Part shown: positions 7,548-51,813 of the stretch, one piece after another
Position numbering within the stretch: the stretch's first letter is position 1
How the letters are laid out: the number at the start of each line of letters is the position of its first letter
DNA from: a virus
Strand: one strand, 5' to 3'
Length of the DNA: 55,284 nucleotides
IMG/VR virus record: IMGVR_UViG_3300027749_003730
Coordinates: 1 to 55,284 of that record
The notes under the pieces: generated by a model
What the model saw: the letters and a program-made list of their open reading frames with translations, nothing else
Told to the model about the DNA's origin: nothing
Database searches by the model: none
Made by a program: the position numbers and the translations under genes

Positions 7548-8708
7548 ATGAAAAGACTAACAGTAGTAGGACGCGGAACAGTTGGATGCATGGCAATTGC
7601 CCATTTTTTAAGATGGACTGATTGGGAAATCATTTGGGCATATGATCCTACTATTGCTCCGGTTGCTGTTGGCGAAGGCACTACCCTTGCTGTACCTCGA
7701 TCTCTAAAAGACAGTATGAAATTTAGGTATACTGATATGGAAGCAATTGACTCTACTGTAAAATTAGGTGTACGCAAACACAATTGGGGAAGCAACGGTA
7801 CACTATTTGATCATTCATTTGGAATAGGTGATGTTGGATTGCATTTTAATGCAGTTAATTTCCAAAATTATATTTTTGAAAAATTAAAGATTCATCCTAG
7901 AATAACATTATTAGAAAAATCAGTTAGTCCAGACGAAGTTGATTCAGATTACGTTATGATGTGTACTGGAACCCCAACAGATTTTACAGACTACAATACT
8001 ATAAAACATATACCAATTAATGCATGTTATGTCTCACAGTGCCCGTGGGAATTAGCTAGATTTAATTATACACTTGCAATAGCTAGACCTTATGGTTGGA
8101 TATTTGGTATACCACTGAATAATAGATGTAGTATTGGATATATGTATAATTCTGATATTAATACGTTAGATGAAGTTAAAGCAGACAGTGAGATTGTATT
8201 AAAAGAATACGGGTTAACTCCATCACTGCAACGAGAGATAAAATTTTCTAATTACTTTAGAAAAAATAATTTTTCAGACCGAGTAGTATACAATGGAAAT
8301 TCATCTTTCTTTTTGGAACCATTAGAGGCAACATCAACTGCATTATCTGATCAGATTACACGATTTTGTATCGACATATGGAAAGATAAAACTCTTAATG
8401 CTATAGATGCAAATCGCAAATATAATATTATGATAGACGAAATTGAATCTATGATTAGTATGCATTATATGTCTGGTTCAATTTATCAAACAAAATTTTG
8501 GGATCATGCGATGAATTTAGGCGAAGAAAAAATTAGAGAACAATTTAAGAATAATACTCCGTTCTCGCAAATTATTAGAGCGGCGCTTAGTTCTACATCA
8601 ATGTTTGATTTATATCCAATTGAAATTGGTACTTGGGGACTGTTATCTTATAAGACAAACATTGACGGTTTGGGTATTAGAGATCGGCTTAAAAATTTAG
8701 AAAATTAA
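7548..8708 (+). CDS. Tryptophan-halogenase-like flavoprotein (copy 1)
   Basis: This 386-residue protein carries the marks of flavin-dependent halogenases: a GRGTVG dinucleotide-binding loop (about 8-13), VAVGEGTTLAVP (about 40-51) matching the GES/GEGT element, GWIFGIP near residue 183 in place of the classical GWxWxIP, and FFLEPLEATST near 261-271. Such enzymes use FADH2, O2 and halide to halogenate aromatic substrates such as tryptophan. A viral member (VirX1 from a cyanophage) has been characterised. The protein is shorter than most bacterial halogenases. A related gene lies at 36724-37887. A flavin reductase partner is not obvious, unless the nitroreductase at 316-1080 serves. Confidence 0.78.
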   Translation: MKRLTVVGRGTVGCMAIAHFLRWTDWEIIWAYDPTIAPVAVGEGTTLAVPRSLKDSMKFRYTDMEAIDSTVKLGVRKHNWGSNGTLFDHSFGIGDVGLHFNAVNFQNYIFEKLKIHPRITLLEKSVSPDEVDSDYVMMCTGTPTDFTDYNTIKHIPINACYVSQCPWELARFNYTLAIARPYGWIFGIPLNNRCSIGYMYNSDINTLDEVKADSEIVLKEYGLTPSLQREIKFSNYFRKNNFSDRVVYNGNSSFFLEPLEATSTALSDQITRFCIDIWKDKTLNAIDANRKYNIMIDEIESMISMHYMSGSIYQTKFWDHAMNLGEEKIREQFKNNTPFSQIIRAALSSTSMFDLYPIEIGTWGLLSYKTNIDGLGIRDRLKNLEN

Positions 8709-14211: not shown

Positions 14212-14712
14212 ATGTTTATATGGCAATACATTGACTTAGATCCGACAGTAGTGTCGAGCATACAGCAGAGATACCTCAATGCCCTAGTGCAAGATAAAAA
14301 GCAATTCTTTCAACATCTAGATATTGGCGTTTCTGAATTTTTAGATTTGCCGATATCTAGACCCGTATTAATTCGTGTTCCGCCCAATACACGTTCAGCA
14401 ATACATACAGATGAACGACCAAATGATGCTGTTCTTGCAATTAATATACCTTTAATAAACTGCGATCAATCGTTAACTGAATTTTGGAAAACTGATAATG
14501 ATAGTGCATTTATTAGAAAATTAACACCTAATTTTGTTCCATTTTATGAAATTGATCCTAACAAATGTCAAAAAATATCCGAATTTGTTTTAACTAAACC
14601 GATTATATTTAATACAAGTATTCCGCATTCTGTACACAATTACTCTAATCAAATTAGATTTGGTATCAGTATAAGATTTAAAAAAGATCCGTGGCACCTA
14701 ATAAATATTTAA
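14212..14712 (+). CDS. Putative DSBH (2OG-Fe(II)-like) oxygenase
   Basis: In this 166-residue protein, AIHTDERP contributes an H-x-D near residues 64-66. IPHSVHNYS near 142-150 gives the distal histidine, and IRFGISIRF supplies a possible 2-oxoglutarate arginine. This resembles the aspartyl/asparaginyl hydroxylase-like group with a short core. There is no clear ribosome binding site, and the ATG is two bases after the preceding stop. The next gene encodes another DSBH-like protein, so the two may act together. Confidence 0.6.
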   Translation: MFIWQYIDLDPTVVSSIQQRYLNALVQDKKQFFQHLDIGVSEFLDLPISRPVLIRVPPNTRSAIHTDERPNDAVLAINIPLINCDQSLTEFWKTDNDSAFIRKLTPNFVPFYEIDPNKCQKISEFVLTKPIIFNTSIPHSVHNYSNQIRFGISIRFKKDPWHLINI

Positions 14713-14713
14713 A

Positions 14714-15262
14714 ATGACATTATTATTTTTACCGATTGATATACAGGTTGATAAAATCAATTTTAAAAGAACTGATAACTTAAAAAAGGTTCCGTCACAA
14801 ATATTTCAACCTTCTTGGTGGGATTCTGCAATATTAGATAAGCCGTCACTTGCACAGTTTGATCATATTATCGAACAACTTCCTTACAATAAAATTTCTA
14901 TTGTTATGCATAAGTTCCAAAACGGTCCTGTGGGTAGTCATCTTGATGTATACCCTAGCATGAAAATTGAAGCTGAAGAATTAGAAAATATTAAAGAGAA
15001 CGAACCTTGCGGGTATCGATTAGTTCTTAATGGAAGAAACGATGTATTAGAAATTTTTGATGGTGTTAATTGGTTAACACCTACCTTACCAACAGTCCCA
15101 TGTTGTTATCTTATTAATTCCACTAAACTAAGACATCGAGTTATGAATGATCCAGGTAGAGAAGTTTTGTACTTTAGAGGTATAATAAACAAAGAGAGAA
15201 ATCAAGAATTAATTGAAAAAAGTTTGAAAGTATATAAAGACCATGCTGTATATTCAAAATAA
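14714..15262 (+). CDS. Putative DSBH oxygenase-like protein
   Basis: In this 182-residue protein, GPVGSHLDVYPS (H-x-D at about H76/D78) precedes a core that includes GYRLVLNGRNDVLEIF. LRHRVMND (distal His near 139) and REVLYFRGII complete the likely fold. The pattern resembles small 2OG-Fe(II) proteins seen in marine phage genomes. It begins one base after the previous stop. An AATAAATA box (14700-14707) sits just upstream and may be a late promoter. Confidence 0.5.
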   Translation: MTLLFLPIDIQVDKINFKRTDNLKKVPSQIFQPSWWDSAILDKPSLAQFDHIIEQLPYNKISIVMHKFQNGPVGSHLDVYPSMKIEAEELENIKENEPCGYRLVLNGRNDVLEIFDGVNWLTPTLPTVPCCYLINSTKLRHRVMNDPGREVLYFRGIINKERNQELIEKSLKVYKDHAVYSK

Positions 15263-16016: not shown

Positions 16017-16023
16017 ATTATTC
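16011..16023. terminator. Palindrome at convergent junction (possible bidirectional terminator)
   Basis: GAATAA-A-TTATTC pairs over six bases across the stops of two converging genes. There is no T run, so the termination role is inferred from repetition of the same arrangement at three other convergent junctions. Confidence 0.35.
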
Positions 16024-16821
16024 GTCTTTATATAACTTAATAATGTCACCGGCAGGATCAAGTTCCCACCATTTACCACTAGCACCAGAGCCAAAATGGC
16101 TACTTCTTGGTTTACCATGATGATTATTGTGCCAACATTCGCCAAATACTAATGGAAACAAAAATGGTATATTTTGACTTGCATCCTTTGTTGCAAAGTT
16201 TGTATAGCCTAATTTTTTTATATGATTTAAACAGTTTGTTAAATTATAGCTGAACAATGTTATTAAACACGACAACATACTAAAATATAAAAATATAGAA
16301 GGACTAATTAAAAATAAAATAAGATTAAAACTTAAAAAAAGTTTTACATAATGATCATGTACAAATACAATTTCTTTATCTCTAATAAGGTCCACAGCAT
16401 ATTTAGGTTTAAGTTGACTACCGTCTAATCTAAACATCCATAAAATAAAACTATGCAACATTCCATGAATAGGACTGTGAGGATCAGTTTCAGTATCAGG
16501 TGCTCTATGATGGTATCCGCGATGAACAATAGTCCAAAAAATAGGACTGCCTTGACCAGCCATTGATCCAGCAAATAACAGGAATCGTCTTTTCCATTTG
16601 TTAGTTAATACAAAACTATTGTGACAAAAGTACCTGTGATAACCTACTGTTATGCCCATGATCATGAATACGAAATATCCAAGTGCTGTTAAAAAGAAAT
16701 TGCTCCATTGAAAATCGGTCACTAAGGTATATCCGGCATAACTTCCCATTACTATCATAGGTACTACCACCCCTAATAAAATTGGAACTTCAATCAAGTT
16801 TTTATATATTGGTCTAAACAT
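16018..16821 (-). CDS. Fatty acid desaturase (copy 1)
   Basis: This protein of about 267 residues shows the three histidine boxes of membrane di-iron desaturases: HRYFCH, HRGYHH and HNNHH. Hydrophobic segments surround them. Delta-9-type enzymes introduce a double bond into acyl chains. The start at 16821 is preferred over one 12 codons upstream because it overlaps the preceding stop by only eight bases. The neighbouring gene is a GNAT-like protein, and the same gene pair recurs at 23198-24593. It may remodel membrane lipids or an acyl group on the ACP at 24653. Confidence 0.85.
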   Translation of the reverse strand: MFRPIYKNLIEVPILLGVVVPMIVMGSYAGYTLVTDFQWSNFFLTALGYFVFMIMGITVGYHRYFCHNSFVLTNKWKRRFLLFAGSMAGQGSPIFWTIVHRGYHHRAPDTETDPHSPIHGMLHSFILWMFRLDGSQLKPKYAVDLIRDKEIVFVHDHYVKLFLSFNLILFLISPSIFLYFSMLSCLITLFSYNLTNCLNHIKKLGYTNFATKDASQNIPFLFPLVFGECWHNNHHGKPRSSHFGSGASGKWWELDPAGDIIKLYKDE

Positions 16822-17422
16822 TTTTAATTTTTTTTCCTGTTCTAACAATATAATCATCCTGTAGTGGGCGCCTACCCATCATCCCCCAAACCCAATCTAT
16901 ATTTGGTTGAGATCCAGCTGGAATTTCAACAGTCGTTTCATATGTATAACTGTTATTTATTTCGGGTATCATACGCTGATAAAACGCATCAAATTTACTC
17001 CATCTGCCGGGTTTGATCAAACTATGCCAAGCTGTTAGGCCCTTTTTCTCGCATTCTATGAACATAAATTCCCATAGTGGTTTCATATATCTCCTAAGGG
17101 CATTTTTTTCAGGGTCTGATTTAAGATAGACTATTACCCAATCTTTATCATAAGGATCGGGTAAATCACATCGCCATCCCACCATAGCCATTAAAGTACC
17201 TTCTTCAAATAAACCATAGAGATAATGATGGTTGTCATCATTAAGGTAATATCGTTTCATACCAGAAATCCATAGATTCCAAAAATTATCTAATTGCTCT
17301 AAGGATTTATCAATAGGTATATTTGGTTTTTTCTGGGCCCTATCCACTTCGGCCAGATGACATTTCCAAAATAGTTTTTCAATTTCGGCAATATCTGTAA
17401 GATTTAATCTTTTAATTTCCAT
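16814..17422 (-). CDS. GNAT-like N-acyltransferase (copy 1)
   Basis: This 202-residue protein resembles the GNAT fold: an acidic N-terminal helix, a strand LYGLFEEGTLMAMVGWR (about 70-86), and a late AFYQRMIPEI stretch near 150. The C-terminal WGMMGRRPLQDDY is not typical. The best support is its partner copy at 23961-24593, which has the same length, a matching position before a desaturase and shared ETTVE/ERTVEEVVPAGQ features. If correct, it could transfer an acyl group, perhaps from the ACP. The acyl donor and acceptor are unknown. Confidence 0.45.
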   Translation of the reverse strand: MEIKRLNLTDIAEIEKLFWKCHLAEVDRAQKKPNIPIDKSLEQLDNFWNLWISGMKRYYLNDDNHHYLYGLFEEGTLMAMVGWRCDLPDPYDKDWVIVYLKSDPEKNALRRYMKPLWEFMFIECEKKGLTAWHSLIKPGRWSKFDAFYQRMIPEINNSYTYETTVEIPAGSQPNIDWVWGMMGRRPLQDDYIVRTGKKIKNV

Positions 17423-17943
17423 TGTTTTAATATATTAACATCTCCAGTATATAATATATCCTGGAAACAATTTTCTTGTGGGCCGTTGCACATCCAAACT
17501 CTGTTTTCATACAGATAAAATTCATTACCATGTGTATTTAACGAATCTGCAAGATTGGTTAATGTATTTCTGGAATTATGTTCTCTTGAGATAAACGCAA
17601 TTTTAAAATCTGTTTTATTTTCTTTTAACCAATTATGTTGATGATCAATCATATCTAAAAATATTTGATCAATACTTTTGCTTACATGAAATTGACGATC
17701 AGCTTTCCATGTACGATTAAGGATGCGATAAGCACCGTCGGGCCATGACGTTCTTCTAAATATTGTGCTAAACAAAAATGGTATATCGTTTTTATAACCA
17801 ATACTAAATGCTTCTTGCTCTGAAAAATTAAAATTTAAAACTGAGTAATTATAAGACAACTTATCATTTCTAAGTTCTTGTTCTTTACGAAACATATTAA
17901 ACGTAGAAATTAACGGATTGTCAAATTTAAATGTACATATCAT
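17404..17943 (-). CDS. Hypothetical protein (179 aa)
   Basis: No family is recognised for certain. The sequence has an alpha/beta feel (EAFSIGYKNDIPFLFSTIFRR, then IAFISREHN) and a late NRVWMCNGP segment. A distant GNAT-like acyltransferase is possible but unsupported by a clear acetyl-CoA loop. It overlaps its neighbours by 19 bases downstream and four upstream, so it belongs to the minus-strand operon that runs from the aldolase to the desaturase. Confidence 0.5.
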   Translation of the reverse strand: MICTFKFDNPLISTFNMFRKEQELRNDKLSYNYSVLNFNFSEQEAFSIGYKNDIPFLFSTIFRRTSWPDGAYRILNRTWKADRQFHVSKSIDQIFLDMIDHQHNWLKENKTDFKIAFISREHNSRNTLTNLADSLNTHGNEFYLYENRVWMCNGPQENCFQDILYTGDVNILKQWKLKD

Positions 17944-18809
17944 GCAGATTCTACAACTGTTAAGTCTTTAAATATTTCACCATCTAAAATCATTTGGAAT
18001 GGATGTTTGCCCCAGTAATCATTCTGTATCCAGCATCTATTTTCCTCATCATAATCAAACCAAGGACTATAACCTAAAACAAAATGCACACGATCAACAG
18101 ATGACTTATTCAATAAAACTGCCCTATGTGGGATATTTGTATCCCATGTATATGCATGATCAACATTAAGGTGATATGGATTTTCATTTTCCATTTGAAA
18201 TGCAAATTCTGGAGCTGTCGTTATAGGAATATTGATGCGTAGGTTAACACATATTATTTCGTCACGGTGCCAATTTAAATCTGATTGAAATTTATTAGGT
18301 TTATGATTCTTAAGTACTGCTAATCTACTTCTAGTTAAAGACCTAATTGATTTAGAATCTAAAAATTCTTTAATATATCCGTAATTATATAGTCGAGTCT
18401 TGTCAACAAATCCGTAAGTATCAAAATAACTATCTTTTAATTTGGCATGTGTTTCTGTTTGAGCGTAGAAAAATTCAGAACTACTATTCTTAGGAGTTCC
18501 TAAAGTACTACCTTCTGGATCCATATCATCTTGATGATACTTATTATATACAAAACTAAGTCCTCCGTAGACTGACGAGTTTGCAAATTTAGTTTTCCAT
18601 CCCCTAAATTTATATTCGTTAAGGGCATCAAGAGTATCTTTTGTTAATGCTTCTTTGTTATAATTTTCTAATTTAAATTCTATCTTTTTTAACGGAAGTT
18701 GATCTTTAATCTCAACCCACTTATCATAAGATTTAGTTTTATTAAAAATATAATTTTCAGTGGTTATATTATTGGGTACTTCGTCTCTATAAATTCTAAC
18801 TACCATTTT
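17940..18809 (-). CDS. Putative DSBH oxygenase, large type (copy 1)
   Basis: This 289-residue protein is a clear paralogue of the one at 21347-22234. Shared elements are the LNWHRDE (H-x-D) or YGWHHDE motif, YTWDTNIPHRAVL or YSWDTGLMHRVF distal histidine region, HFVLGYSPWFDYDE and HPF-ILxGG/DGE endings. This set fits 2OG-Fe(II)-like hydroxylases acting on larger substrates. The start at 18809 is preferred because GGAG lies seven bases upstream and the length then matches the paralogue (295). It overlaps the upstream stop by 14 bases. Confidence 0.6.
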   Translation of the reverse strand, partial: KMVVRIYRDEVPNNITTENYIFNKTKSYDKWVEIKDQLPLKKIEFKLENYNKEALTKDTLDALNEYKFRGWKTKFANSSVYGGLSFVYNKYHQDDMDPEGSTLGTPKNSSSEFFYAQTETHAKLKDSYFDTYGFVDKTRLYNYGYIKEFLDSKSIRSLTRSRLAVLKNHKPNKFQSDLNWHRDEIICVNLRINIPITTAPEFAFQMENENPYHLNVDHAYTWDTNIPHRAVLLNKSSVDRVHFVLGYSPWFDYDEENRCWIQNDYWGKHPFQMILDGEIFKDLTVVESA

Positions 18810-19362
18810 TGTACTCCGCAATCTCTTTATTAAATACCAACATCGCTGTTTCCCATCTTGTAAATATTTGAGGCCTAATACTAATTGACCATCTATCATT
18901 TGATGAAAAGTTTTCAACTCGATGCGGAGATCCTATATTACAGATAGTAGGAGTATCAATAGTAGTTGAGGCAATTTTGATTACTTCATTTTCCTCCCAT
19001 GACTTATAAGTAGTTCCTGCTTTTGTATCTCCGCTATTACTATTAGGACCTTTGCTAGCACTATACCAATTCATTATATGATTGTCGCTCCCCCATGCCC
19101 AGTTTAATGCCCAACAATCGTGTAGTGTATTGCCATCTATATGAATTAAACTTTTTTTAAAGGGCGGCGTTAAAAATATATAGGCTTTTATAAGTATGTT
19201 TCTATCTGCAAACCAGTTAATTAGCGCAGGATTAAGTGCGGCAAGGTCAAGAGAAAATATCTTATGTATAGGAAATATCCTATAACTTCTTTGCAACCCG
19301 TCTATATCATAATTTGGATTTATCCAAGGGATGTCTAATTTAATTTTTTTAAAGTATTCCAT
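18796..19362 (-). CDS. Putative DSBH oxygenase, small type (copy 1)
   Basis: In this 188-residue protein, SLIHIDGN (H-x-D near 73-75) and SPHRVENFSSNDRWSISIRP (distal histidine and arginine near 147-165) are those of aspartyl/asparaginyl hydroxylase-like proteins. The N-terminus has the WINPNYDIDG motif of small viral DSBH proteins. The partner large-type oxygenase lies directly downstream, and the same small/large pairing recurs at 20822-22234. The gene abuts the aldolase: its ATG overlaps the aldolase stop. Confidence 0.6.
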   Translation of the reverse strand: MEYFKKIKLDIPWINPNYDIDGLQRSYRIFPIHKIFSLDLAALNPALINWFADRNILIKAYIFLTPPFKKSLIHIDGNTLHDCWALNWAWGSDNHIMNWYSASKGPNSNSGDTKAGTTYKSWEENEVIKIASTTIDTPTICNIGSPHRVENFSSNDRWSISIRPQIFTRWETAMLVFNKEIAEYKNGS

Positions 19363-20180
19363 TATGAATTAATATCCGGATTCTCTGCTAGAGTTTTTTC
19401 TACTATTGGATAAAATTGAACCCATGCAGAATACGGAGACCCCATAATCTTAGCTGTAAAATCCAATGCAGCTTGACTCATTGCCTTCGGTTGTACTCCA
19501 TTTGCCTTCATTCCCTCTAATAAGAATTGTGTCTTACAAGCATTCTCTAAAGAAATAAACAGCCATGCTGCTTCTTCTAAAGTTTCTCCAACTGTATAAA
19601 TTCCGTGATTTTGTAATATAACTGCTTTATTCTTACCTAAGCACTTGGCCATATTGTAGCCTTCAGACTGAGTGACTATAGCCCCATTAAATTGTGTATA
19701 TACTGACAGATTATTATGAAAGATGCAAGTGTCTTCAGTTGAATAATCAATAGGAAGACCAAAGGTTGACCAAGCTGATCCGTAGTGACTATGCACATGT
19801 GCAGCAGCAACAATCTCTGGTCTCATTTTTCTAATAACGGTAAATGTAGCCCATGCTGGTCTGCTTGCTGGATAGTTCCCTTCAATAACATCACCATTAG
19901 CATTAACCCTGACCAATGACGATACAGTGACTCTAGAAAAATCTAAACCCATCGGGTTTACCCAATACGTATCAGTAAACTCTGGGTCACGAACAACGAT
20001 GTATCCACCAATTCCATCAGTATACCCGTTGTTAGCAAACACTCTACAGGCCACTACTAGGATACGTTTAATGTATTTTCTTTCGTCTTCAAAACTAGTA
20101 AACTTTGGAATTGCAGGTAATGCTCCTCCTTTTCGAGTTGAAGATGTTGGATCGTTATTGTAAATATCAGTAGTTGTCAT
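19362..20180 (-). CDS. Class II aldolase/adducin-family protein
   Basis: This 272-residue protein resembles L-fuculose-phosphate-type aldolases. The metal-binding HVHSHYG (H-x-H near residue 127-133) is followed by a third histidine in ILQNHGIYTVG near 196-206. RGGAL-like and NNGYTDGIGG segments precede. These enzymes cleave or join sugar phosphates, and the epimerase and sugar-alcohol branches share the same motifs. It is the first gene of the minus-strand operon 20180 to 16018. The role next to oxygenases, GNAT and desaturase is unclear. It may supply a sugar or a small aldehyde building block. Confidence 0.8.
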   Translation of the reverse strand: MTTTDIYNNDPTSSTRKGGALPAIPKFTSFEDERKYIKRILVVACRVFANNGYTDGIGGYIVVRDPEFTDTYWVNPMGLDFSRVTVSSLVRVNANGDVIEGNYPASRPAWATFTVIRKMRPEIVAAAHVHSHYGSAWSTFGLPIDYSTEDTCIFHNNLSVYTQFNGAIVTQSEGYNMAKCLGKNKAVILQNHGIYTVGETLEEAAWLFISLENACKTQFLLEGMKANGVQPKAMSQAALDFTAKIMGSPYSAWVQFYPIVEKTLAENPDINS

Positions 20181-20202
20181 GATTATAGTTAAATAGTATG
20201 GA

Positions 20203-20210
20203 TATTTAGT
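20203..20210 (-). promoter_or_regulatory. Possible T4-type late promoter (ACTAAATA)
   Basis: On the minus strand, ACTAAATA lies 22 bases ahead of the aldolase start. It matches the TATAAATA late box at six of eight positions. It would serve the minus-strand operon. Confidence 0.35.
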
Positions 20211-20247
20211 AGACGTACCACGGTGTATATACGAGTCGTGGACTAAG

Positions 20248-20255
20248 GATAAATA
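20248..20255 (+). promoter_or_regulatory. Possible T4-type late promoter (GATAAATA)
   Basis: GATAAATA lies 19 bases ahead of the next start, with an AAAAGG site in between. The divergent box at 20203-20210 points the other way. Confidence 0.5.
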
Positions 20256-20274
20256 GTTAAAAGGTAATAATGCT

Positions 20275-20829
20275 ATGCTTTATTTAAGAATACATACAAC
20301 TCAAAAGAAAACTGGTCACGAAGAATTTATAAATCAAATATTTTCAACAGATCCTGATCCAAAAACTCGATCAATAGTACGTCCCGATGATTGGGCAATT
20401 GGCATAACTCCAGAATCTACTCCAGGTTTTAGATTAGTTAAAGAACATGATTTAACACATTTGCCTGGAGGTCCAGGAAGATACACATATACTGATCAGA
20501 AAGCGGCTGATCATTCTTTGTTCCAATATGCATTAGTACTTTATCAATTAGTAATTTTGAAAGATATATTACTGAGATACAATAAGGTAGATGCTGATGG
20601 AAAACTATTAACTTATATTGTAGCTTCAAGTAAAGAATTATGGGATACTGCTATTGATAAAGAATATAATTCATTAACAACACAGATATCAGAACTATTT
20701 GATATTACAAATAGCGATAAAGAAATAACAGAGAGTGAATATACTACGTTAGTGACTGATATCTATAATGATATTAACAACATGAAAAATAACAATATTG
20801 GAAAATGTCGACTAGATTGTATTAAATAA
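20275..20829 (+). CDS. Hypothetical phage protein (184 aa)
   Basis: The sequence opens MLYLRIHTTQKKTGHEEFINQIF. It has a middle rich in helices (SLFQYALVLYQLVILKDIL) and an acidic C-terminal half. No catalytic motif is apparent. It is transcribed opposite to its neighbours behind a late-type box, so it could be a virion or assembly protein. The stop overlaps that of the next, convergent gene. Confidence 0.55.
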   Translation: MLYLRIHTTQKKTGHEEFINQIFSTDPDPKTRSIVRPDDWAIGITPESTPGFRLVKEHDLTHLPGGPGRYTYTDQKAADHSLFQYALVLYQLVILKDILLRYNKVDADGKLLTYIVASSKELWDTAIDKEYNSLTTQISELFDITNSDKEITESEYTTLVTDIYNDINNMKNNNIGKCRLDCIK

Positions 20830-20833
20830 TACA
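20818..20833. terminator. Palindrome at convergent junction
   Basis: TGTATT-AAAT-AATACA pairs over six bases across overlapping stop codons of two convergent genes. It is the same arrangement as at 16011 and 23203. Confidence 0.35.
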
Positions 20834-21346
20834 TCCAACAAGAGCATATCGATCAAAATTTGAATGATTAAACACTTTATGAGAATATGAAGTGTTTAAT
20901 CTATAAACAGTTCCTACTTGTTTGTCTAACACAATTTCTTTGTTTTTAACTTTAAAAATAAAATCGCTTGAGAAATTTAAATCACAGTGTAGTCTAACTT
21001 GATCGTCAAAATCTACATGCCAGTCTAAACCAAATCCGGGTTTCATTACAGCAACTCTTAGTTCTTTAGTTTTAATAGATAACTCTTTTTCTACGTGATC
21101 AACAAGCTGTTGATTTAGATAAGTTTGAATATAATTAGAAACAATATATTCATGATGTGCTTTAACATAGTCCGAACTTATTGAGTTTGAATATCGAGCA
21201 TTCAACGATTCAACTACATTATTGTCATTAGTATCAGCAAAATCAATAAGACTCATTGTTAGCTCATTTGAAATATTTCCAATAATGCTATGTAGTTCTT
21301 GTTTACGAAGAGCTGATAATTTTTTTAGAACTTCAAGTTTTTCCAT
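20822..21346 (-). CDS. Putative DSBH oxygenase, small type (copy 2)
   Basis: In this 174-residue protein, LDWHVDFDDQVRLHCDL gives an H-x-D and a second histidine. TSYSHKVFNHSNFDRYALVG supplies a distal histidine and arginine, as in aspartyl/asparaginyl hydroxylase-like proteins. It stands beside the large-type oxygenase at 21347-22234, mirroring the pair at 17940-19362. It ends on the convergent gene 20275-20829. Confidence 0.6.
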   Translation of the reverse strand: MEKLEVLKKLSALRKQELHSIIGNISNELTMSLIDFADTNDNNVVESLNARYSNSISSDYVKAHHEYIVSNYIQTYLNQQLVDHVEKELSIKTKELRVAVMKPGFGLDWHVDFDDQVRLHCDLNFSSDFIFKVKNKEIVLDKQVGTVYRLNTSYSHKVFNHSNFDRYALVGCII

Positions 21347-22234
21347 TTAGGTAGCTTCTTTAAATTTTAATCCGGGTATAGTATGTCCGCCCACTAAAAT
21401 ATCAAACGGATGCATATTTCCGTAGTATTCATTTATATTCCAACTATCGTCAGTTTCATCGTAATAGAACCAAGGACTAATTCCAATAACAAGATGTGCT
21501 CTAATCTTATCTGCTATCTGATCTGAAAAAACTCTATGCATTAACCCTGTATCCCAAGAATAGCTTTTCCCTGTTTCTAAATGATAAGGTTTCCCGTCTT
21601 TCATTTGAAATTTAAAAATAGGATCAGTAATCATAGGAACATTCAATCTTAAATTTTCAAATATAGATTCGTCGTGATGCCAGCCGTAGGTTTTTAATTC
21701 TGATGGATCATTAAATTTATCTGCATGTATTATTGACATTCTCCCTCTAGTCAAACTTAATTTAAATGAATCAAGAAACTCTCCAAGATAGCCAGTCGTT
21801 GATGCTGGGGTTCTACATCTAAACCCTAATGTATCAAGATAAGTATTTTTCTTATAAACTATATCATTTTGATACATTTTAAAATCTACCATTTTATTTG
21901 TACCTAGTGAGCTTTGGTGCAGATTCATAACATCAGAATGATCGGGATTATACATTAAACTAAATCCGGTATAAATCTCACTTGTTAATGATGTTCCGTC
22001 GGAGTCCGACTTAATCCAACCGTGATCACCATGTGTAGCTAATGCCGTATTAGTTGATTCCCATAGCTTTGTATGATCAATATCTATGTTTTCGAATACA
22101 ATAGTTTTTGTGTCAACTGGCACCAACTTTGGTAGTATAGATTTTATAAGAGATTTGTAGTCAGTCTGAGATGCAATATAACTAGATATTGTCATATCGC
22201 CTGGAACTTCGGATATTAGAAATTTTGTTTTCAT
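21347..22234 (-). CDS. Putative DSBH oxygenase, large type (copy 2)
   Basis: This 295-residue protein is a paralogue of 17940-18809. It shares YGWHHDE (H-x-D), YSWDTGLMHRV, VIGISPWFYYDE and HPFDILVGG with that copy. It may use 2-oxoglutarate and iron to hydroxylate a substrate produced by neighbouring enzymes. A perfect TATAAATA box on the minus strand lies 28 bases ahead of its start (22263-22270). It begins the small operon 22234 to 20822. Confidence 0.6.
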   Translation of the reverse strand: MKTKFLISEVPGDMTISSYIASQTDYKSLIKSILPKLVPVDTKTIVFENIDIDHTKLWESTNTALATHGDHGWIKSDSDGTSLTSEIYTGFSLMYNPDHSDVMNLHQSSLGTNKMVDFKMYQNDIVYKKNTYLDTLGFRCRTPASTTGYLGEFLDSFKLSLTRGRMSIIHADKFNDPSELKTYGWHHDESIFENLRLNVPMITDPIFKFQMKDGKPYHLETGKSYSWDTGLMHRVFSDQIADKIRAHLVIGISPWFYYDETDDSWNINEYYGNMHPFDILVGGHTIPGLKFKEAT

Positions 22235-22262
22235 ATTTTTTAATTAGTAAATACTAACGAAC

Positions 22263-22270
22263 TATTTATA
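22263..22270 (-). promoter_or_regulatory. T4-type late promoter (TATAAATA)
   Basis: A perfect TATAAATA on the minus strand drives the pair of DSBH genes to its left. The 28-base spacer to the start codon also holds the inverted repeat TTAGT/ACTAA. Confidence 0.6.
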
Positions 22271-22280
22271 GACTGGGCAT

Positions 22281-23201
22281 ATGGAACAAAAAATAATTGT
22301 ATATCAAAAACTACCGTCATTGATAGACACATGGGAGGCTGAACAAAATCCTTTCAAAGTTGTCATTGCCGATATCACTCATAAGTGTAATATGGAGTGT
22401 AATAATTGTTATATTCCTAACAGAGATTTTCCAGACATGGATACTGATACATTGGTTAATTTCGTAAAAAGATTACCCAATCGAGTTGAGCTGAGATTGA
22501 TAGGTGCAGAACCTACAATGAACGACGACTTGCCAAATTTAATTCAGAGATTAACTTCTGAGACAGCACATAGGATAATATTGTTAACTAATGGATTAAA
22601 GCTGGCCAGCAGACGATATGCAGAAACTTTAAAAAATGCAGGATTAAAATATCTTTATATCAGTATGAACGGGTTAGACAATGACAATTGGTACGAAAAA
22701 ATAGACGGTCTTGCCTGTGCTAAAAATAAAATCAAAGCATTGGAAAATGCAGTTGATCTTGGATTTGCTATTGATATAGGATGTATTTTAGTTAAAGGTG
22801 TAAATGAATCTGCTGTTGATAAAATACTGCCTATATTAAAAAAAGTAGGAATGACCAACGGTGTGATTAGATTTAAAAATGTAGGGCAAGTTGGCAGATA
22901 TCAACTTGAGTCAGATCAAAATTTAAGCATAGAAAATATTTCTAAAATGTGTTCGACTGCATGGAATATAGATTTAAACAAAATAGAAAATAGTAAAAAC
23001 TTAGGGGCTGGGAGAGAATTTGAAACTCGATACTTTTCGATAGATAATAGTACTCATCGAGGTTTAGGTTTTTGGTGTAAGATAACTGATTGGGAATATA
23101 TCAGTGCAGGTGGTGTTTCTTATCGTCGAGGAAGGATAACTGAAGATTGGAAGCTAGCTGGTTTTAGCGAGCATGTTAAGGCCAACGAAGGCGGATATTA
23201 A
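22281..23201 (+). CDS. Radical SAM protein
   Basis: This 306-residue protein has the 4Fe-4S motif at C36-C40-C43 (HKCNMECNNC) near its start. LRLIGAEPTMN near residue 73 replaces the usual GGEP. It may have an auxiliary ligand in FWCKITDWEY near residue 261. Members without a full SPASM tail often act in cofactor or RiPP biosynthesis. The gene lies between the two minus-strand operons of the lipid/2OG module, and its product could be the carbon-chemistry step there. There is no recognised ribosome binding site. Confidence 0.8.
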   Translation: MEQKIIVYQKLPSLIDTWEAEQNPFKVVIADITHKCNMECNNCYIPNRDFPDMDTDTLVNFVKRLPNRVELRLIGAEPTMNDDLPNLIQRLTSETAHRIILLTNGLKLASRRYAETLKNAGLKYLYISMNGLDNDNWYEKIDGLACAKNKIKALENAVDLGFAIDIGCILVKGVNESAVDKILPILKKVGMTNGVIRFKNVGQVGRYQLESDQNLSIENISKMCSTAWNIDLNKIENSKNLGAGREFETRYFSIDNSTHRGLGFWCKITDWEYISAGGVSYRRGRITEDWKLAGFSEHVKANEGGY

Positions 23202-23971
23202 TCTTTAATTGATATTAAAGGAACGATGTATTTTGCTAGATCAAATTCTCCAGGATTCCTAGCATACGTATAGTTCTTCGAGTCTAGATGATGATTATGA
23301 TGTAAAGTATTTCCTAAACTTAAAATCATCATTATCTTAGATTTTAAATTTACAGAATTATCCGTAGTAGTTCCAGTAGTATACCCGTAGTCTAAATCGT
23401 GTGCAAAGCTATTAACAAATCCCTCAATGTGAAAATGATATACTGCACCACCTACCATAAAGAATACAGCCGCTTGACAACTTATTATTGATAGTAGTAT
23501 AAGTGATAACCACCATATCTTAAAATAATTTCTATGCATGAATTTTAAGATAGGATCCCTTAACAATTGTCTATTAAGTTTTGGCCAAACAATATCCATA
23601 TTATGCCATAGTAGCCAACTCCATAGTTTACCCTTCAATGGAGTATGTGGATCTAATTCCTTATCAGAATTAGCATGATGTAGTCTTATATGTATTGCTT
23701 CTACTTCTATTGGAGTTCCGTTGCCGCACAGTAGTGCAATATATGCACCAAAATAAGCCAATGCTGGATATGTTTTAAATGACTTATGGCACCAATATCT
23801 GTGCATGAATATAGTAAAACCTAAATATCCAAATACAAGATATCCTAAAGGAATCAATAATAAATTCCAAACTGAGGTATATCCTGCAAGAATAGAAATG
23901 ATTCCTACAAGTAAAATAATGTGTTGGGGGACTATTATTTTCCAAATATGTGGTTTTAGTTTATTTTTCAT
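23198..23971 (-). CDS. Fatty acid desaturase (copy 2)
   Basis: In this 257-residue protein, the histidine boxes are HRYWCH, HIRLHH and HHNHH in the right order, with hydrophobic segments between them. It differs well from copy 1 at 16018-16821, so the two are old paralogues rather than a recent duplication. It lies downstream of a GNAT-like gene, as copy 1 does. It ends at a convergent junction with the radical SAM gene. It would add a double bond to an acyl chain or act on lipid head groups. Confidence 0.85.
   Translation of the reverse strand: MKNKLKPHIWKIIVPQHIILLVGIISILAGYTSVWNLLLIPLGYLVFGYLGFTIFMHRYWCHKSFKTYPALAYFGAYIALLCGNGTPIEVEAIHIRLHHANSDKELDPHTPLKGKLWSWLLWHNMDIVWPKLNRQLLRDPILKFMHRNYFKIWWLSLILLSIISCQAAVFFMVGGAVYHFHIEGFVNSFAHDLDYGYTTGTTTDNSVNLKSKIMMILSLGNTLHHNHHLDSKNYTYARNPGEFDLAKYIVPLISIKD
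23203..23220. terminator. Hairpin at convergent junction
   Basis: CTTTAAT-TGAT-ATTAAAG makes a seven-base stem at the meeting point of two convergent genes. It is the strongest of the junction palindromes and could act on both strands. Confidence 0.4.
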
Positions 23972-24593
23972 TAAATTCCAAAGTCAATGCTTTTTGTAAA
24001 TCTGGGTTAACATTGTTTCTAAATTTTTGTTTGCAAGTAAACTTTAATACCATAGTTTCATAGTCTAAAGGTTTTCCGTGATATAAGATTGTATTGAAAA
24101 ATGTCCAATTAGTAAACTGACCTGCAGGTACAACTTCTTCTACAGTTCTTTCGTAATTTAAAAACTTAGGAACATGTTTCATGTAAATGTTGTGATATTT
24201 TTTATACTGCAATCTAGAAATCTCTGTTGTTCGCAACATATAAAAATCATATAAATTTTTAGACTCTTGGTCTTCAATTAATCGAGTCCATAATTCTGCC
24301 CATCCATTTCTAACTGGATCATATATATTGTTTGGCTTTAGATTCCTCCAATTATAAACAACATAGGCCGGTAAATGCTTAAAATCAACAATTGAAATCA
24401 TACTTGTTAATTCGTTAGCATCATTATAGTAGCCATAGACTGTGCTATTTGGAGTTCGAAAAATAGCATAGGTATATTTTAAAAATTCTTCTTCAGATAC
24501 GTTTTGTCTAGTTTGAGCAACTCGATGATATGGCAGTGCTTTGATGGCGGTTGCTAAACTATCCCAGTCGTCTGGTGTTAATACTTTAATCAT
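23961..24593 (-). CDS. GNAT-like N-acyltransferase (copy 2)
   Basis: In this 210-residue protein, an early acidic helix, TVYGYYNDANELTSMISIVDF (a strand pair near 57-77) and the late ERTVEEVVPAGQFTNW segment (about 159-175) resemble the copy at 16814-17422. The GNAT family uses acyl-CoA or acyl-ACP, and an ACP gene lies immediately to the right. Overlap with the desaturase is 11 bases. The CTAAATA box just upstream leaves only four bases before the ATG, so the message may be nearly leaderless. Confidence 0.5.
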   Translation of the reverse strand: MIKVLTPDDWDSLATAIKALPYHRVAQTRQNVSEEEFLKYTYAIFRTPNSTVYGYYNDANELTSMISIVDFKHLPAYVVYNWRNLKPNNIYDPVRNGWAELWTRLIEDQESKNLYDFYMLRTTEISRLQYKKYHNIYMKHVPKFLNYERTVEEVVPAGQFTNWTFFNTILYHGKPLDYETMVLKFTCKQKFRNNVNPDLQKALTLEFNEK

Positions 24594-24597
24594 AAAA

Positions 24598-24605
24598 TAT
24601 TTAGT
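24598..24605 (-). promoter_or_regulatory. Possible T4-type late promoter (ACTAAATA)
   Basis: ACTAAATA on the minus strand ends four bases before the GNAT-like start. If active, transcripts begin at or inside the start codon. Confidence 0.35.
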
Positions 24606-24621
24606 GTATGCTAACTAGGCA

Positions 24622-24629
24622 CATAAATA
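24622..24629 (+). promoter_or_regulatory. Possible T4-type late promoter (CATAAATA)
   Basis: CATAAATA lies 23 bases before the acyl carrier protein start, with AAGGAA in between. It would drive the ACP, hypothetical and PLP-type genes. Confidence 0.45.
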
Positions 24630-24652
24630 ATTGCCAGCCTAAGGAAGTTTAA

Positions 24653-24880
24653 ATGAATTATGAAATAATAGTCACTGAAGCTATTTCTAAGTTAATTAAA
24701 AGACCAGTATCGGAAATACTAACAACGTCTAATTTACAAGACGACTTACAACTAGACAGCTTAGATATTGTAGAATTACTAATGGATATTGAGGACGAGT
24801 CATTACAAGATTTAGATCCCAATATTTTTGAAAACTGTAATACAGTAGGGGATCTTATCAGCATCCTCGAAAGGAAATAA
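24653..24880 (+). CDS. Acyl carrier protein
   Basis: This 75-residue acidic protein has the ACP fold signature. The phosphopantetheine serine is S36 in LQLDSLDIVELLMDIED, the classical DSL site, with LxxDL-like helix I before it. The length matches bacterial ACPs (75-80). It carries acyl groups as thioesters for synthesis or transfer. The host must supply the phosphopantetheinyl transferase. It begins the plus-strand set with an unknown protein and a PLP-type enzyme, and lies opposite the GNAT-like gene and desaturase. This suggests a phage acyl-modification pathway. An AAGGAA site precedes it. Confidence 0.88.
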   Translation: MNYEIIVTEAISKLIKRPVSEILTTSNLQDDLQLDSLDIVELLMDIEDESLQDLDPNIFENCNTVGDLISILERK

Positions 24881-24883
24881 TTT

Positions 24884-25237
24884 ATGAAAGTACTTGTCAC
24901 ATTTAACGGTGGCCCCGAATGGAATCCTGATGATTATAGCGTTCCCCATCATCACATAGCTCACGGTGTTTCAGAAGAGTTTATGAAAAAAAGTTTAGAA
25001 TGGATATACAAAATTCCGGGATTACTCGGAGCATCTACTGATAAGCCAAAAGATCCAACCACTGGAATTAATTGGATTACTACTTTAGAGTTTACTAATG
25101 CACCTAATCAAATAATAGACAGTGTCCCAGCAACTGAAGATATTATTTCTAATTACATAATAACAGAATTCAAATCTAATATTATTCCTGAGTTATCTAA
25201 AGTTGGATATAAAATAGATATTACAACAGCACAATGA
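24884..25237 (+). CDS. Hypothetical protein (117 aa)
   Basis: This protein of 117 residues starts MKVLVTFNGGPEWNPDDY and has a HHHIAHG cluster near residues 22-28 that might bind metal. No family is recognised. It follows the ACP by three bases and overlaps the PLP-type gene by four. A partner or tailoring protein in the ACP pathway is plausible from the coupling, but nothing in the sequence shows a reaction. Confidence 0.5.
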   Translation: MKVLVTFNGGPEWNPDDYSVPHHHIAHGVSEEFMKKSLEWIYKIPGLLGASTDKPKDPTTGINWITTLEFTNAPNQIIDSVPATEDIISNYIITEFKSNIIPELSKVGYKIDITTAQ

Positions 25238-26085
25238 TTAATCAATACTATAATAAATTAACAAAGCCTATTAGAGATTCTAAAATAACAGAAATTTTAA
25301 AAAGTATTGACACAACTAAAATTTTTCCTGCCGATGTTGAATTTAATTTTAAAGAAAGGCTAGCAGTTAAAAATGAACTGATTTCTCAATTTATTCCCTG
25401 GGTTGGAAACTTTTTAAATGGACTATCAGCGTTTACTCACAAGTATATAGCTAACGGTAATTCTGATGCGCTTAACATGGTGTTTATGAAAAAAGGTTTC
25501 AATCGAGTATGCTTTTTAAAAAATGAATATAGTTATTACTCTTATCTATGTAAAACATTAAACATTGAGTATCTTGAGTTAGAAACTTTTGAAATTAATC
25601 TGTTATCTAGTACAGATTTATTTTTAATCAGTTTACCTTCTAGTTATGACGGATCATCAACCGAACGTATTGAAATGATTAATCAATTACAACAAGCAGG
25701 AATGAATATATTCATTGACATTGCATACTGCGGACTAACTGATCCATTTTATCTAAATTTAACATCTACAAAGAATACAGTTGTATCTTTTACCTTTAGT
25801 AAATCTTCATCGTTATCCTACAATAGGATAGCACTTATGTTTTCAGACTCGGAAATACCAAGTTTGGAAATTATGAATAAAATAGGATATGTTAATTTAG
25901 CAGGAGCAAATGCTGCCATTGCTATCATGAAGTCTATTCCAGTAGATTACTTTTATATTAATTATAAAGATCAATATGAAGATATTTGTAAATCCCAAAA
26001 TATAACACCAACTAAGTGTATATTATTTGGGCATGATCAAAATAATGATAAATTTTGTACAACTCCTTACTATAAAACTACTTGA
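25234..26085 (+). CDS. Putative PLP-dependent (aminotransferase class I/II-like) protein
   Basis: This 283-residue protein has the elements of fold-type I PLP enzymes: NGNSDALNMVF near 74-84, an FIDIAYCGL strand with D162 and Y165 in place of the D-x-x-Y cofactor-contact site, and a likely Schiff-base lysine K190 in FTFSKSSSLSYNRIALM with R198 after it. It is shorter than usual (350-400 residues), so a domain may be lost or compact. If active, it might condense an acyl-ACP with an amino acid, as alpha-oxoamine synthases do, but this is a guess from its neighbour. The stop overlaps the next promoter. Confidence 0.5.
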   Translation: MINQYYNKLTKPIRDSKITEILKSIDTTKIFPADVEFNFKERLAVKNELISQFIPWVGNFLNGLSAFTHKYIANGNSDALNMVFMKKGFNRVCFLKNEYSYYSYLCKTLNIEYLELETFEINLLSSTDLFLISLPSSYDGSSTERIEMINQLQQAGMNIFIDIAYCGLTDPFYLNLTSTKNTVVSFTFSKSSSLSYNRIALMFSDSEIPSLEIMNKIGYVNLAGANAAIAIMKSIPVDYFYINYKDQYEDICKSQNITPTKCILFGHDQNNDKFCTTPYYKTT

Positions 26086-26115: not shown

Positions 26116-26652
26116 ATGACTATTTCCAAAAGCCCTGAACGACATACCTTCCAAGCGGAAAACTATGTCAAACACTGTGAGGAAAAGGGTGAAGAGCCCA
26201 ATCCCGACTATGTTAATATGTACAAGACTTGGCGAGAACAGGATGAAGAAAATCTAAAAGATCCTGCTTGGCAGAAGAACAACATGCAATATGATCTCCG
26301 ATCAACTGATTGGATACTAGCCAAAGTTCGAGAATCCGATAGCTATGCTCAAAATTTGTATGCAGCCATTTGCAACAACGATTTCTGCAAGCGTGAGATG
26401 TGGCCTATTCTCAAAGAAGAATATTGGAGTGCTAGTTGGAGATCAGCTGGAGGCATTGTTGCTGACATGCGTGAAGAGGGTGACTACATTGATTGGTACT
26501 GTAGCGGTATTGGTAATCCGGACTCGGGTTATGGGCTAGATGGCCGTCGAGCAAATGGTTATGTACCAGAAAGTGTAGTGACTGATGAAATTAAAGACGA
26601 CCTATATAAATTAGGTTGGTTAGTAGTAGAACAAAAGGATGACATGTTATGA
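26116..26652 (+). CDS. Conserved hypothetical phage protein (178 aa)
   Basis: This tryptophan- and acid-rich protein (MTISKSPERHTFQAENYVKH onward; later YDLRSTDWILAKVR, WSASWRSAGGIVADMREEGDY) has no catalytic motif I recognise. The start is judged leaderless because the promoter -10 box ends at 26110. A later in-frame Met at residue 35 is the alternative. It overlaps the cupin gene by four bases. Confidence 0.6.
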   Translation: MTISKSPERHTFQAENYVKHCEEKGEEPNPDYVNMYKTWREQDEENLKDPAWQKNNMQYDLRSTDWILAKVRESDSYAQNLYAAICNNDFCKREMWPILKEEYWSASWRSAGGIVADMREEGDYIDWYCSGIGNPDSGYGLDGRRANGYVPESVVTDEIKDDLYKLGWLVVEQKDDML

Positions 26653-27053
26653 GTAGGTTAGAAGGTAAAGTAGACAAAGGCTGGGGCTACGAAATCATTT
26701 GGGCAACTAATGATAAGTACTGTGGCAAACTGTTATGTTTTTCTAAACCTGGTGCAAAATTTAGTATGCACTTTCATAAAGAAAAAGAAAAAACTTGGTT
26801 TATTAATTCTGGACAGTTTGTGTTAAGATATATTGATACTAAAACAACAGAGCTTAAACTGGTAAATTTAAAAGAAGGTGACGTATGGAAAGTAGAACCA
26901 CTAGTTCCTCATCAATTAGTCGCCATGCACCCAGACTCTGTTATATTTGAAGTTAGCACCGCTGACTCTGAAACAGACATGTATAGGGTAGCCCCAGGAG
27001 ATAGTCAAGTTAAAAAGGAAGAACCAAATGCAAACATTGACATTCAAAGCTGA
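26649..27053 (+). CDS. Cupin domain protein (mannose-6-phosphate isomerase-like)
   Basis: This 134-residue protein has the single cupin core. The metal-binding MHFHKEKEKTWFINSG region (about 40-55) is followed by VPHQLVAMHPDSVIFEVST (about 94-112). The opening KGWGYEIIWATNDKYCGKLL matches type II phosphomannose isomerase/GDP-mannose pyrophosphorylase C-terminal cupins. A role in sugar metabolism or sensing is possible. The acidic tail PGDSQVKKEEPNANIDIQS is variable. It overlaps the next small gene by 26 bases. Confidence 0.75.
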   Translation: MSRLEGKVDKGWGYEIIWATNDKYCGKLLCFSKPGAKFSMHFHKEKEKTWFINSGQFVLRYIDTKTTELKLVNLKEGDVWKVEPLVPHQLVAMHPDSVIFEVSTADSETDMYRVAPGDSQVKKEEPNANIDIQS

Positions 27054-36034: not shown

Positions 36035-36724
36035 ATGTTTGGAACAAGTTATACAGGCGGAATGTCATATCGTTCTGCTAGTGAGATTAATTCAGCAATG
36101 GGTCGTGTCTACGGACACATGAGTTTGGCTGTTATTGTATCAATGATTGTCAGCTACTTCGTAGGCACTAGCCCAGAGTTGTTAGCTTTCTTTTTTACAG
36201 GTGTAATGAAGTGGATTGTGATTTTCTCTCCACTTGCGGCAATCTTTGGTGTTATGATGGTACTAGCCAATAATCCTAGCAAGAGTATAGCACAACTATG
36301 CTTACACGGTTTTGCGGCACTAATGGGCCTGAGCTTTGCTACTATCTTTGCGGTGTTCACTATGGGCAGTATTGTGTCAGCATTTATGGGTGCGGCTATT
36401 CTGTTTGGTGTGATGAGTGGATATGGGTATTTTACTAAACAGAGTCTAGACAGTCTAGGCAAGTTTATGTTTGTGGGATTGATTGCGATCATCATTGCCA
36501 GTATTGTTAACATCTTTATTGGTAGTACAGTTATGCAAATGGTTATCTCAGCATTAGCAATTATTATCTTTCTTGGATTGACTGCCTATGACACCCAAAA
36601 GATACGTGAAGAACTCAGCATAGAAACTAGTGATAGTGCAGAAGTTCGTGGTGCTCTAACGCTTTATATGGACTTTATTAACTTGTTTATTAACTTACTA
36701 CAATTATTTGGCGATAGAAAATAA
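36035..36724 (+). CDS. Bax inhibitor-1/YccA-family membrane protein
   Basis: This 229-residue protein has seven hydrophobic segments and family-like motifs: GYFTKQSLDSLGKFMF (about 128-143) and LGLTAYDTQKIREE (about 180-193). The YDTQ segment near the last helices is diagnostic. Bacterial YccA binds and inhibits the FtsH protease, so the phage protein may protect phage proteins from proteolysis or prevent early lysis. Its ATG lies one base after the preceding stop, and it overlaps the halogenase start by one base. Confidence 0.88.
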   Translation: MFGTSYTGGMSYRSASEINSAMGRVYGHMSLAVIVSMIVSYFVGTSPELLAFFFTGVMKWIVIFSPLAAIFGVMMVLANNPSKSIAQLCLHGFAALMGLSFATIFAVFTMGSIVSAFMGAAILFGVMSGYGYFTKQSLDSLGKFMFVGLIAIIIASIVNIFIGSTVMQMVISALAIIIFLGLTAYDTQKIREELSIETSDSAEVRGALTLYMDFINLFINLLQLFGDRK

Positions 36725-49405: not shown

Positions 49406-49420
49406 AAATAATATTATTTT
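49405..49420. terminator. AT-only palindrome at convergent junction
   Basis: AAAATAATATTATTTT is a perfect 16-base palindrome covering both stop codons of the converging radical SAM genes. Its role as bidirectional terminator is inferred from the other three convergent junctions. Confidence 0.35.
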
Positions 49421-50469: not shown

Positions 50470-50476
50470 AGTGAAG

Positions 50477-50484
50477 TATTTATA
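50477..50484 (-). promoter_or_regulatory. T4-type late promoter (TATAAATA), minus strand
   Basis: A perfect TATAAATA on the minus strand lies seven bases before the start of the inverted radical SAM gene. A transcript starting at the usual distance would have a leader of at most a few bases. Confidence 0.6.
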
Positions 50485-50497
50485 GCTATATATTATC

Positions 50498-51757: not shown

Positions 51758-51782
51758 CAGTTAAAGAGAAAGACAGTATAAT
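51754..51782 (+). promoter_or_regulatory. Sigma-70 promoter
   Basis: TTGACA (51754-51759), 17 bases, then TATAAT (51777-51782). The next start codon at 51814 has a CGGAG site. The -35 box lies at the stop of the radical SAM gene. Confidence 0.85.
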
Positions 51783-51813
51783 ATACATATTGTTTAACAA
51801 AACGGAGCAGAAA

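What the first reader, a model, noticed from the sequence alone, without database searches (positions are those of the whole stretch)
16018..26085. Phage-borne acyl/lipid module: ACP, two desaturases, GNAT-like, PLP-type, aldolase and 2OG genes
Within 10 kb lie an acyl carrier protein with a DSL phosphopantetheine site, two membrane desaturases with all histidine boxes, two GNAT-like proteins next to them, a PLP-type enzyme coupled to the ACP, a class II aldolase, a radical SAM protein and two pairs of DSBH oxygenases. Single ones of these genes are known in phages, but such a complete set suggests a dedicated pathway that builds or remodels an acyl group, perhaps an N-acylated lipid or small molecule.
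Basis: inference. Interest (0 to 1): 0.72.

Follow-up and report, generated by a model that had tools for sequence, protein, structure and literature searches.

The report
Phage-borne acyl-ACP pathway gene cassette
A family of mostly uncultured aquatic phages carries a conserved set of genes (desaturase, acyltransferase-like, acyl carrier, aminotransferase-like and oxygenase genes) that looks like a dedicated pathway for building a small acyl (fatty, probably amide-linked) molecule during infection; the product is unknown.

Summary
Window 16018-26085 encodes an ACP (DSL serine), two stearoyl-CoA-desaturase-like membrane proteins with all metal ligands (9 His + 1 Asn), a fold-type-I PLP enzyme, a radical SAM protein and several Asp-hydroxylase-type oxygenases. 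The 'class II aldolase' groups with NovR/TqaM, not with sugar aldolases. It is a unit, not an accident: an independent phage contig (L004) keeps 14 of the genes in order at 38-76% identity. In 26 of 30 loci fetched by p179 alone, a desaturase lies within 1.5 kb (18 overlap it), and most p179-coupled desaturases form one clade (100/99). p179-GNAT1 and PLP-oxygenase fusions occur. Relatives add holo-ACP synthase (5 records), ketoacyl synthase and a FabA/FabZ-like dehydratase, so an acyl-ACP pathway is the best reading. A related cluster (desaturase, PLP enzyme, oxygenases and GNAT beside tail-fibre genes) sits in the cultured Pelagibacter phage Mosig. The product, and whether it is an N-acyl compound, a membrane lipid or a surface/tail decoration, is not shown.

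The parts
16018..16857 (-). DES1, SCD/DesA-like membrane di-iron desaturase
   Evidence: Pfam FA_desaturase 5e-14; 9 His + 1 Asn ligand set invariant in A1; in the p179-coupled desaturase clade, support 100/99
16814..17422 (-). GNAT1, GNAT-fold acyltransferase-like, overlaps DES1
   Evidence: second domain of the AF2 model of the L027 fusion is GNAT; GNAT1 family profile
17404..17943 (-). p179, third GNAT-fold protein, anchor of the module (YRILNRxW motif)
   Evidence: first domain of the same model; 19-row alignment A13; desaturase within 1.5 kb in 26 of 30 loci
17940..18806 (-). DSBH288/325, Fe/2OG Asp-hydroxylase-like oxygenase (likely start ATG at 18806 rather than the listed TTG at 18917)
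   Evidence: HxD...H and Arg conserved in A10; 76% identical in L004
18796..19362 (-). DSBH188, oxygenase-like, accessory (absent from L004)
   Evidence: related to 14212-14712; the same family is fused to the PLP enzyme in L046
19362..20180 (-). class II aldolase/adducin-fold protein, probably an iron oxygenase/decarboxylase
   Evidence: NF004855 over cut-off; NovR/TqaM best characterised matches, HxH + H kept
20275..20829 (+). p184, unknown, conserved in L004 (38%)
20822..21346 (-). DSBH174, Asp_Arg_Hydrox
   Evidence: Pfam 4e-5, over cut-off
21347..22234 (-). DSBH295, paralogue of DSBH288/325 (35%), not in L004
22281..23201 (+). radical SAM protein (MoaA/Tes-like core)
   Evidence: Pfam 2e-18; PDB 7tol 2e-15; next to desaturase and p179 in marine contigs L009-L013
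23198..23971 (-). DES2, second desaturase, different clade from DES1
   Evidence: Pfam 5e-11; tree
23961..24593 (-). GNAT2, GNAT1-related, overlaps DES2
   Evidence: iterated profile E 1e-84 and match to the GNAT1 profile 1e-35
24653..24880 (+). acyl carrier protein, Ser36 in LDSLD
   Evidence: PP-binding 3e-9, AcpP-type NCBIfam matches below cut-off
24884..25237 (+). p117, small protein between ACP and PLP, unknown
   Evidence: 43% in L004
25234..26085 (+). fold-type-I PLP enzyme, shortened HisC-like
14714..15262 (+). p182, conserved cassette member (HxD...H pattern, DSBH-like by inspection only)
   Evidence: 57% in L004 beside DES1
14212..14712 (+). DSBH166, flanking oxygenase-like; beside the PLP gene in L004
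   Evidence: 47% in L004

Best explanation
A phage biosynthetic cassette that makes an unsaturated, oxidised acyl compound on its own acyl carrier protein. Proposed steps: (1) holo-ACP synthase (the host's here, phage-encoded in relatives) puts phosphopantetheine on Ser36 of the ACP [inferred from family]; (2) the ACP receives an acyl chain from host fatty-acid synthesis, helped in some relatives by phage ketoacyl synthase and FabA/Z-like dehydratase [inferred]; (3) DES1 and DES2 introduce double bonds in the acyl chain [family-based]; (4) the ACP-coupled PLP enzyme supplies or alters an amino group [inferred]; (5) the p179/GNAT1 pair and GNAT2 move the acyl group from ACP to an amine, giving an amide [inferred]; (6) Fe/2OG oxygenases, the NovR/TqaM-like protein and the radical SAM enzyme tailor the product [inferred]. 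Shown: gene content, folds, conserved linkage, fusions and co-inheritance. Not shown: substrates, order of steps, product.
For: Whole-cassette synteny in an independent phage contig; desaturase within 1.5 kb of p179 in 26/30 loci, distance-matrix correlation r=0.81 over 19 pairs, one clade holding most p179-coupled desaturases; fusions p179-GNAT1 (L027, L046) and PLP-DSBH (L046), ACP abutting or overlapping PLP in L027/L046; AcpS in 5 and ketoacyl synthase in 3 of 28 records, FabA/FabZ-like + ketoacyl synthase + second ACP in L052; GNAT and PLP folds; complete desaturase ligand sets.
Against: ACP was found in only 10 of 28 related records (records are fragments). No AcpS or ketoacyl synthase in the window and no acyl-ACP ligase or thioesterase recognised in the interval. 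The GNATs lack a clean R/QxxGxG/A loop, so CoA/ACP use is unproven. Sequence alone cannot tell acyl-ACP, acyl-CoA and acyl-lipid desaturases apart. No transcript, protein or metabolite data.
Confidence: 0.45

Rival explanations
1. Membrane remodelling: the desaturases unsaturate host phospholipid acyl chains, as proposed for cyanophage and cold-brine phage desaturases; the other genes are auxiliary.
For: Best PDB match is acyl-CoA desaturase SCD1; phage desaturases have been proposed to change membrane fluidity (PMC7300359).
Against: Does not explain the fixed link to p179/GNAT1/PLP/DSBH, the phage ACP and AcpS, or the fusions.
Confidence: 0.2
2. Decoration of the virion tail fibre or of a surface glycan: acyl, amino, carbamoyl and hydroxyl groups are added to a sugar or protein that governs adsorption or superinfection exclusion.
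For: Related cassettes sit near tail-fibre-like genes in L004, L010, L043, L047, L048, L057 and Mosig (judged by N-terminal sequence pattern except in Mosig, where annotated); L004 and Mosig carry a NodU-type carbamoyltransferase and L004 a CMP-sugar-type cytidylyltransferase.
Against: No glycosyltransferase was identified in the window cassette; flanks of tail-fibre genes are variable insertion sites in many phages (general knowledge), so position may be incidental.
Confidence: 0.2
3. The GNAT/radical SAM/oxygenase genes modify macromolecules (tRNA, nucleobases or ribosomal proteins), and the desaturases and ACP are coincidental neighbours.
For: The window has 13 tRNAs; a QueC-like gene occurs in a related locus; MoaA-like radical SAM.
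Against: Desaturase-p179 linkage is near-universal and co-inherited; ACP and AcpS have no evident place in such a system.
Confidence: 0.07
4. Chance gathering of unrelated auxiliary genes in a hypervariable island.
For: The window holds other radical SAM and halogenase genes outside the cassette.
Against: Order and content conserved at 38-76% identity in L004 and in part in more than 20 contigs; one clade of coupled desaturases.
Confidence: 0.05

Closest known systems
Phage fatty acid desaturases (cyanophages: Roitman 2018, seen only as a cited reference; cold-brine phages: PMC7300359)
   Same: SCD/DesA-type desaturase carried by phages
   Different: discussed as genes for membrane lipids; here two desaturases are fixed to GNAT-like, ACP, PLP and oxygenase genes
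ACP + ACPS of Prochlorococcus phages P-HM1/P-HM2 (PMC3037559)
   Same: phage ACP with phage phosphopantetheinyl transferase, Asp hydroxylases and a TauD-type dioxygenase in one genome
   Different: in P-HM2 ACP and ACPS lie about 22 kb apart and no desaturase is annotated in the first 50 kb, the part read
fabG-acpP-fabF set of Rhodobacteraceae prophages (PMC8224337)
   Same: phage-borne ACP pathway genes
   Different: host-like fab operon order; no desaturase/GNAT/PLP/oxygenase cassette described in the passages read
Pelagibacter phage Mosig EXVC030M genes Mosig_00072-00090
   Same: desaturase directly followed by the same PLP family (2.7e-25), with oxygenases, GNAT, carbamoyltransferase and radical SAM beside tail fibres
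   Different: no p179 or ACP match in the 16.6 kb region read; shorter desaturase (216 aa)
Acyl-ACP-using GNAT-fold synthases (N-acyl amino acid synthases, LuxI; from general knowledge)
   Same: GNAT fold, proposed acyl-ACP donor
   Different: no sequence membership shown; paired p179-GNAT1 architecture
NovR / TqaM / pyruvic oxime dioxygenase (PMC5216522)
   Same: class II aldolase fold with three His; pyruvic oxime dioxygenase is shown to use Fe(II)
   Different: substrate and metal of the phage protein unknown

Membership tests
SCD/DesA membrane desaturase | His boxes giving 9 His + 1 Asn metal ligands | tested here: met
   H57,H62,H94,H98,H99,N187,H191,H224,H227,H228 (DES2 numbering) invariant in A1
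SCD/DesA membrane desaturase | family profile over cut-off | tested here: met
   PF00487 53 and 43 bits against 29.7
SCD/DesA membrane desaturase | acyl desaturation activity | not testable with these tools
   needs an assay
Type II acyl carrier protein | DSL serine in a PP-binding domain | tested here: met
   PF00550 37.6 bits against 20.8; LDSLD
Type II acyl carrier protein | NCBIfam cut-off for housekeeping AcpP | tested here: not met
   best 43.6 against 66 bits: ACP-like, not housekeeping AcpP
GNAT acyltransferase superfamily | GNAT fold | tested here: met
   model of the L027 relative of p179 and GNAT1; GNAT2 by profile only
GNAT acyltransferase superfamily | R/QxxGxG/A pyrophosphate loop | tested here: inconclusive
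   by inspection of A8/A11: partial in several GNAT1/GNAT2 members, absent in p179 and window GNAT1
Fold-type I PLP aminotransferase (HisC-like) | PLP Lys, ring-binding Asp, phosphate-binding Arg | tested here: met
   K190, D162, R198 invariant
Fold-type I PLP aminotransferase (HisC-like) | full length and hisC equivalog score | tested here: not met
   29 against 277 bits; about 30-60 residues shorter than the matched HisC chains
L-fuculose-phosphate (class II) aldolase | fucA equivalog score; catalytic Glu73 | tested here: not met
   51 against 400 bits; by inspection no matching Glu in the SRPAW region; NovR/TqaM score far better
NovR/TqaM-type iron oxygenase | fold with HxH + H metal site | tested here: met
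   H128, H130, H192 aligned
NovR/TqaM-type iron oxygenase | iron-dependent oxygenase activity | not testable with these tools
   needs an assay
Type II fatty acid synthase gene set | ketoacyl synthase, reductase, dehydratase with ACP | tested here: not met
   no ketoacyl synthase or AcpS in the window record; present in part in L052

The most novel reading that the evidence does not exclude
A virus-specific natural-product pathway, built on a paired-GNAT + desaturase core with no sampled cellular counterpart, that makes a new class of unsaturated acyl-amide (lipid-like) compound during infection of aquatic bacteria.
Probability: 0.3. Interest if true: 0.88.

Novelty: new variant of a known kind. 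Interest (0 to 1): 0.68.

Why it matters
Phage acyl-ACP genes have been reported as single genes or as a host-like fab set. A conserved multi-gene cassette with its own carrier protein, and in relatives its own activating and condensing enzymes, would mean that phages encode dedicated lipid-like biosynthesis. A related cluster in the cultured Pelagibacter phage Mosig makes this testable by mass spectrometry of infected cells.

Tried and rejected
Chance clustering: rejected by synteny and co-inheritance. True sugar aldolase: rejected. Housekeeping HisC or AcpP: rejected by score. Relatives in cultured phages by direct tblastn of PLP, GNAT2, ACP and the p179-GNAT1 fusion: none; the Mosig cluster came through the desaturase. 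The Acinetobacter phage MD-2021a desaturase hit lies among bacterial housekeeping genes and looks like host sequence, so it was not counted. Cellular relatives of p179 by pattern scan: none, a weak test because only one peptide pattern was used. One Pfam call failed on wrong coordinates. The phrog_2 hallmark search found nothing in the window record. AcpS-like tblastn hits in unannotated Listeria/Staphylococcus 'phage' records were not followed. Rfam was not run.
Full report
Setting. The window is a 55,284-base IMG/VR virus record (G000). It has 13 tRNA genes and phage families such as a head maturation protease, DNA ligase and tail-fibre/virion matches. Megablast of the first 25 kb against sequenced phages found only tRNA genes. 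A second contig (3300009151_005776; L003) matches the cassette and flanks at nearly 100% over about 20 kb and is not counted as independent.

Gene content. Between 16018 and 26085 lie DES1, GNAT1, p179, four DSBH-type oxygenase genes, a class II aldolase-fold gene, p184, a radical SAM gene, DES2, GNAT2, ACP, p117 and a PLP enzyme. Pfam supports the desaturases, aldolase fold, radical SAM, ACP and one oxygenase over cut-offs; PLP and a second oxygenase fall below cut-off; GNAT1, GNAT2 and p179 have no GNAT match there. GNAT1 overlaps DES1 and GNAT2 overlaps DES2 by coordinates, which suggests two translationally coupled GNAT-desaturase pairs.

Folds. A natural p179-GNAT1 fusion (L027:12256-13431) was folded with 30 aligned rows: pLDDT 89, two GNAT-like domains. 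Foldseek returns single GNATs (target-normalised TM mostly 0.6-0.76) and, at poor overall superposition, tandem GNATs (VipF, MAB_4324) and N-myristoyltransferase. So p179 is a third GNAT-like protein. The PLP protein models as a fold-type-I aminotransferase with Asp, Lys and Arg conserved, but is shorter than HisC.

The 'aldolase'. Best PDB sequence matches are 4xxf (deposited as a fuculose-1-phosphate aldolase), then NovR, TqaM and 9n43 (E 2e-54 to 5e-46); the classical FucA entries follow at about 1e-11. The three metal His are kept. A published class II aldolase homologue is an Fe(II) dioxygenase (PMC5216522). An oxygenase or decarboxylase role is inferred.

Conservation. L004 (3300027969_003477), an independent contig, carries PLP, p117, ACP, GNAT2, DES2, radical SAM, DSBH174, p184, aldolase, DSBH288, p179, GNAT1, DES1 and p182 in the same order at 38-76% identity. 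It lacks DSBH188, DSBH295 and the hydrolase at 15243. L019/L020, L027, L030, L033, L034, L046 and L051 carry partial sets; marine contigs L009-L011 and L013 carry radical SAM, desaturase, p179 and DSBH.

Test of linkage. The 30 loci were fetched by p179 alone. A desaturase lies within 1.5 kb in 26: 14 overlap directly on the same strand, 4 overlap tail to tail, 7 have one gene (GNAT1) between, and 1 lies 1.5 kb away. One more is 2.5 kb away; three have none, one of these cut by the contig end. Some loci are near-copies of one another, so these are not independent events. Of 22 p179-coupled desaturases in the tree, 19 fall in one clade of 20 rows (support 100/99; DES1 inside, DES2 outside). p179 and desaturase distances correlate (r 0.81, 0 of 5000 permutations); shared phage ancestry contributes to that.

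ACP dependence. ACP is found in 10 of 28 records (9 over the cut-off), AcpS in 5, ketoacyl synthase in 3 (fragments, so lower bounds). L052 combines AcpS, p179, desaturase, ACP, a second ACP, ketoacyl synthase and a FabA/FabZ-like dehydratase. In L027 and L046 the ACP abuts or overlaps the PLP gene, and in L046 the PLP gene is fused to an oxygenase domain. These tie ACP, PLP, oxygenase, GNAT and desaturase to one process.

Cultured relative. Pelagibacter phage Mosig encodes a desaturase overlapping a PLP protein that matches the PLP profile at 2.7e-25 although it was not used to build it, with oxygenases, a GNAT, carbamoyltransferase, nitroreductase and radical SAM genes beside tail-fibre genes.

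Mechanism. The favoured model is stated in Best explanation. Gene content, folds and linkage are shown; every catalytic step is inferred from families. Main rivals are membrane desaturation and tail/surface decoration.

Novelty. Phage desaturases, phage ACP/ACPS (P-HM1/2, PMC3037559) and a phage fabG-acpP-fabF set (PMC8224337) are known. I found no report of this combined cassette in the library searched, whose coverage is partial. I therefore call it a new variant of phage-borne biosynthesis.

Noticed in passing
window 42520-53013: A run of radical SAM-type genes (three matched phrog_14086); similar runs lie near desaturases in L022 and L025.
   Followed up: partly
window 7548-8708 and 36724-37887: Two tryptophan-halogenase-like proteins (phrog_2928).
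   Followed up: no
window 2583-4061: Large protein whose family lies beside PLP/ACP in L019 and L046 and occurs in 11 related loci; looks like a B12-type radical SAM by eye, not tested.
   Followed up: partly
window 26649-27053: Cupin matching phrog_7851 (cysteine dioxygenase) just downstream of the cassette.
   Followed up: partly
L061:7153-8369: Polaromonas MAG contig with a PLP fragment 74% identical to L051, set among bacterial genes; phage remnant or assembly chimera, possible host hint.
   Followed up: partly
L004:1241-6041: Cytidylyltransferase and NodU-type carbamoyltransferase upstream of the cassette.
   Followed up: partly
L019:12200-12884: Two tandem small p117-like proteins with a GGPxWNP-type N-terminus near the PLP/GNAT genes; function unknown.
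   Followed up: no
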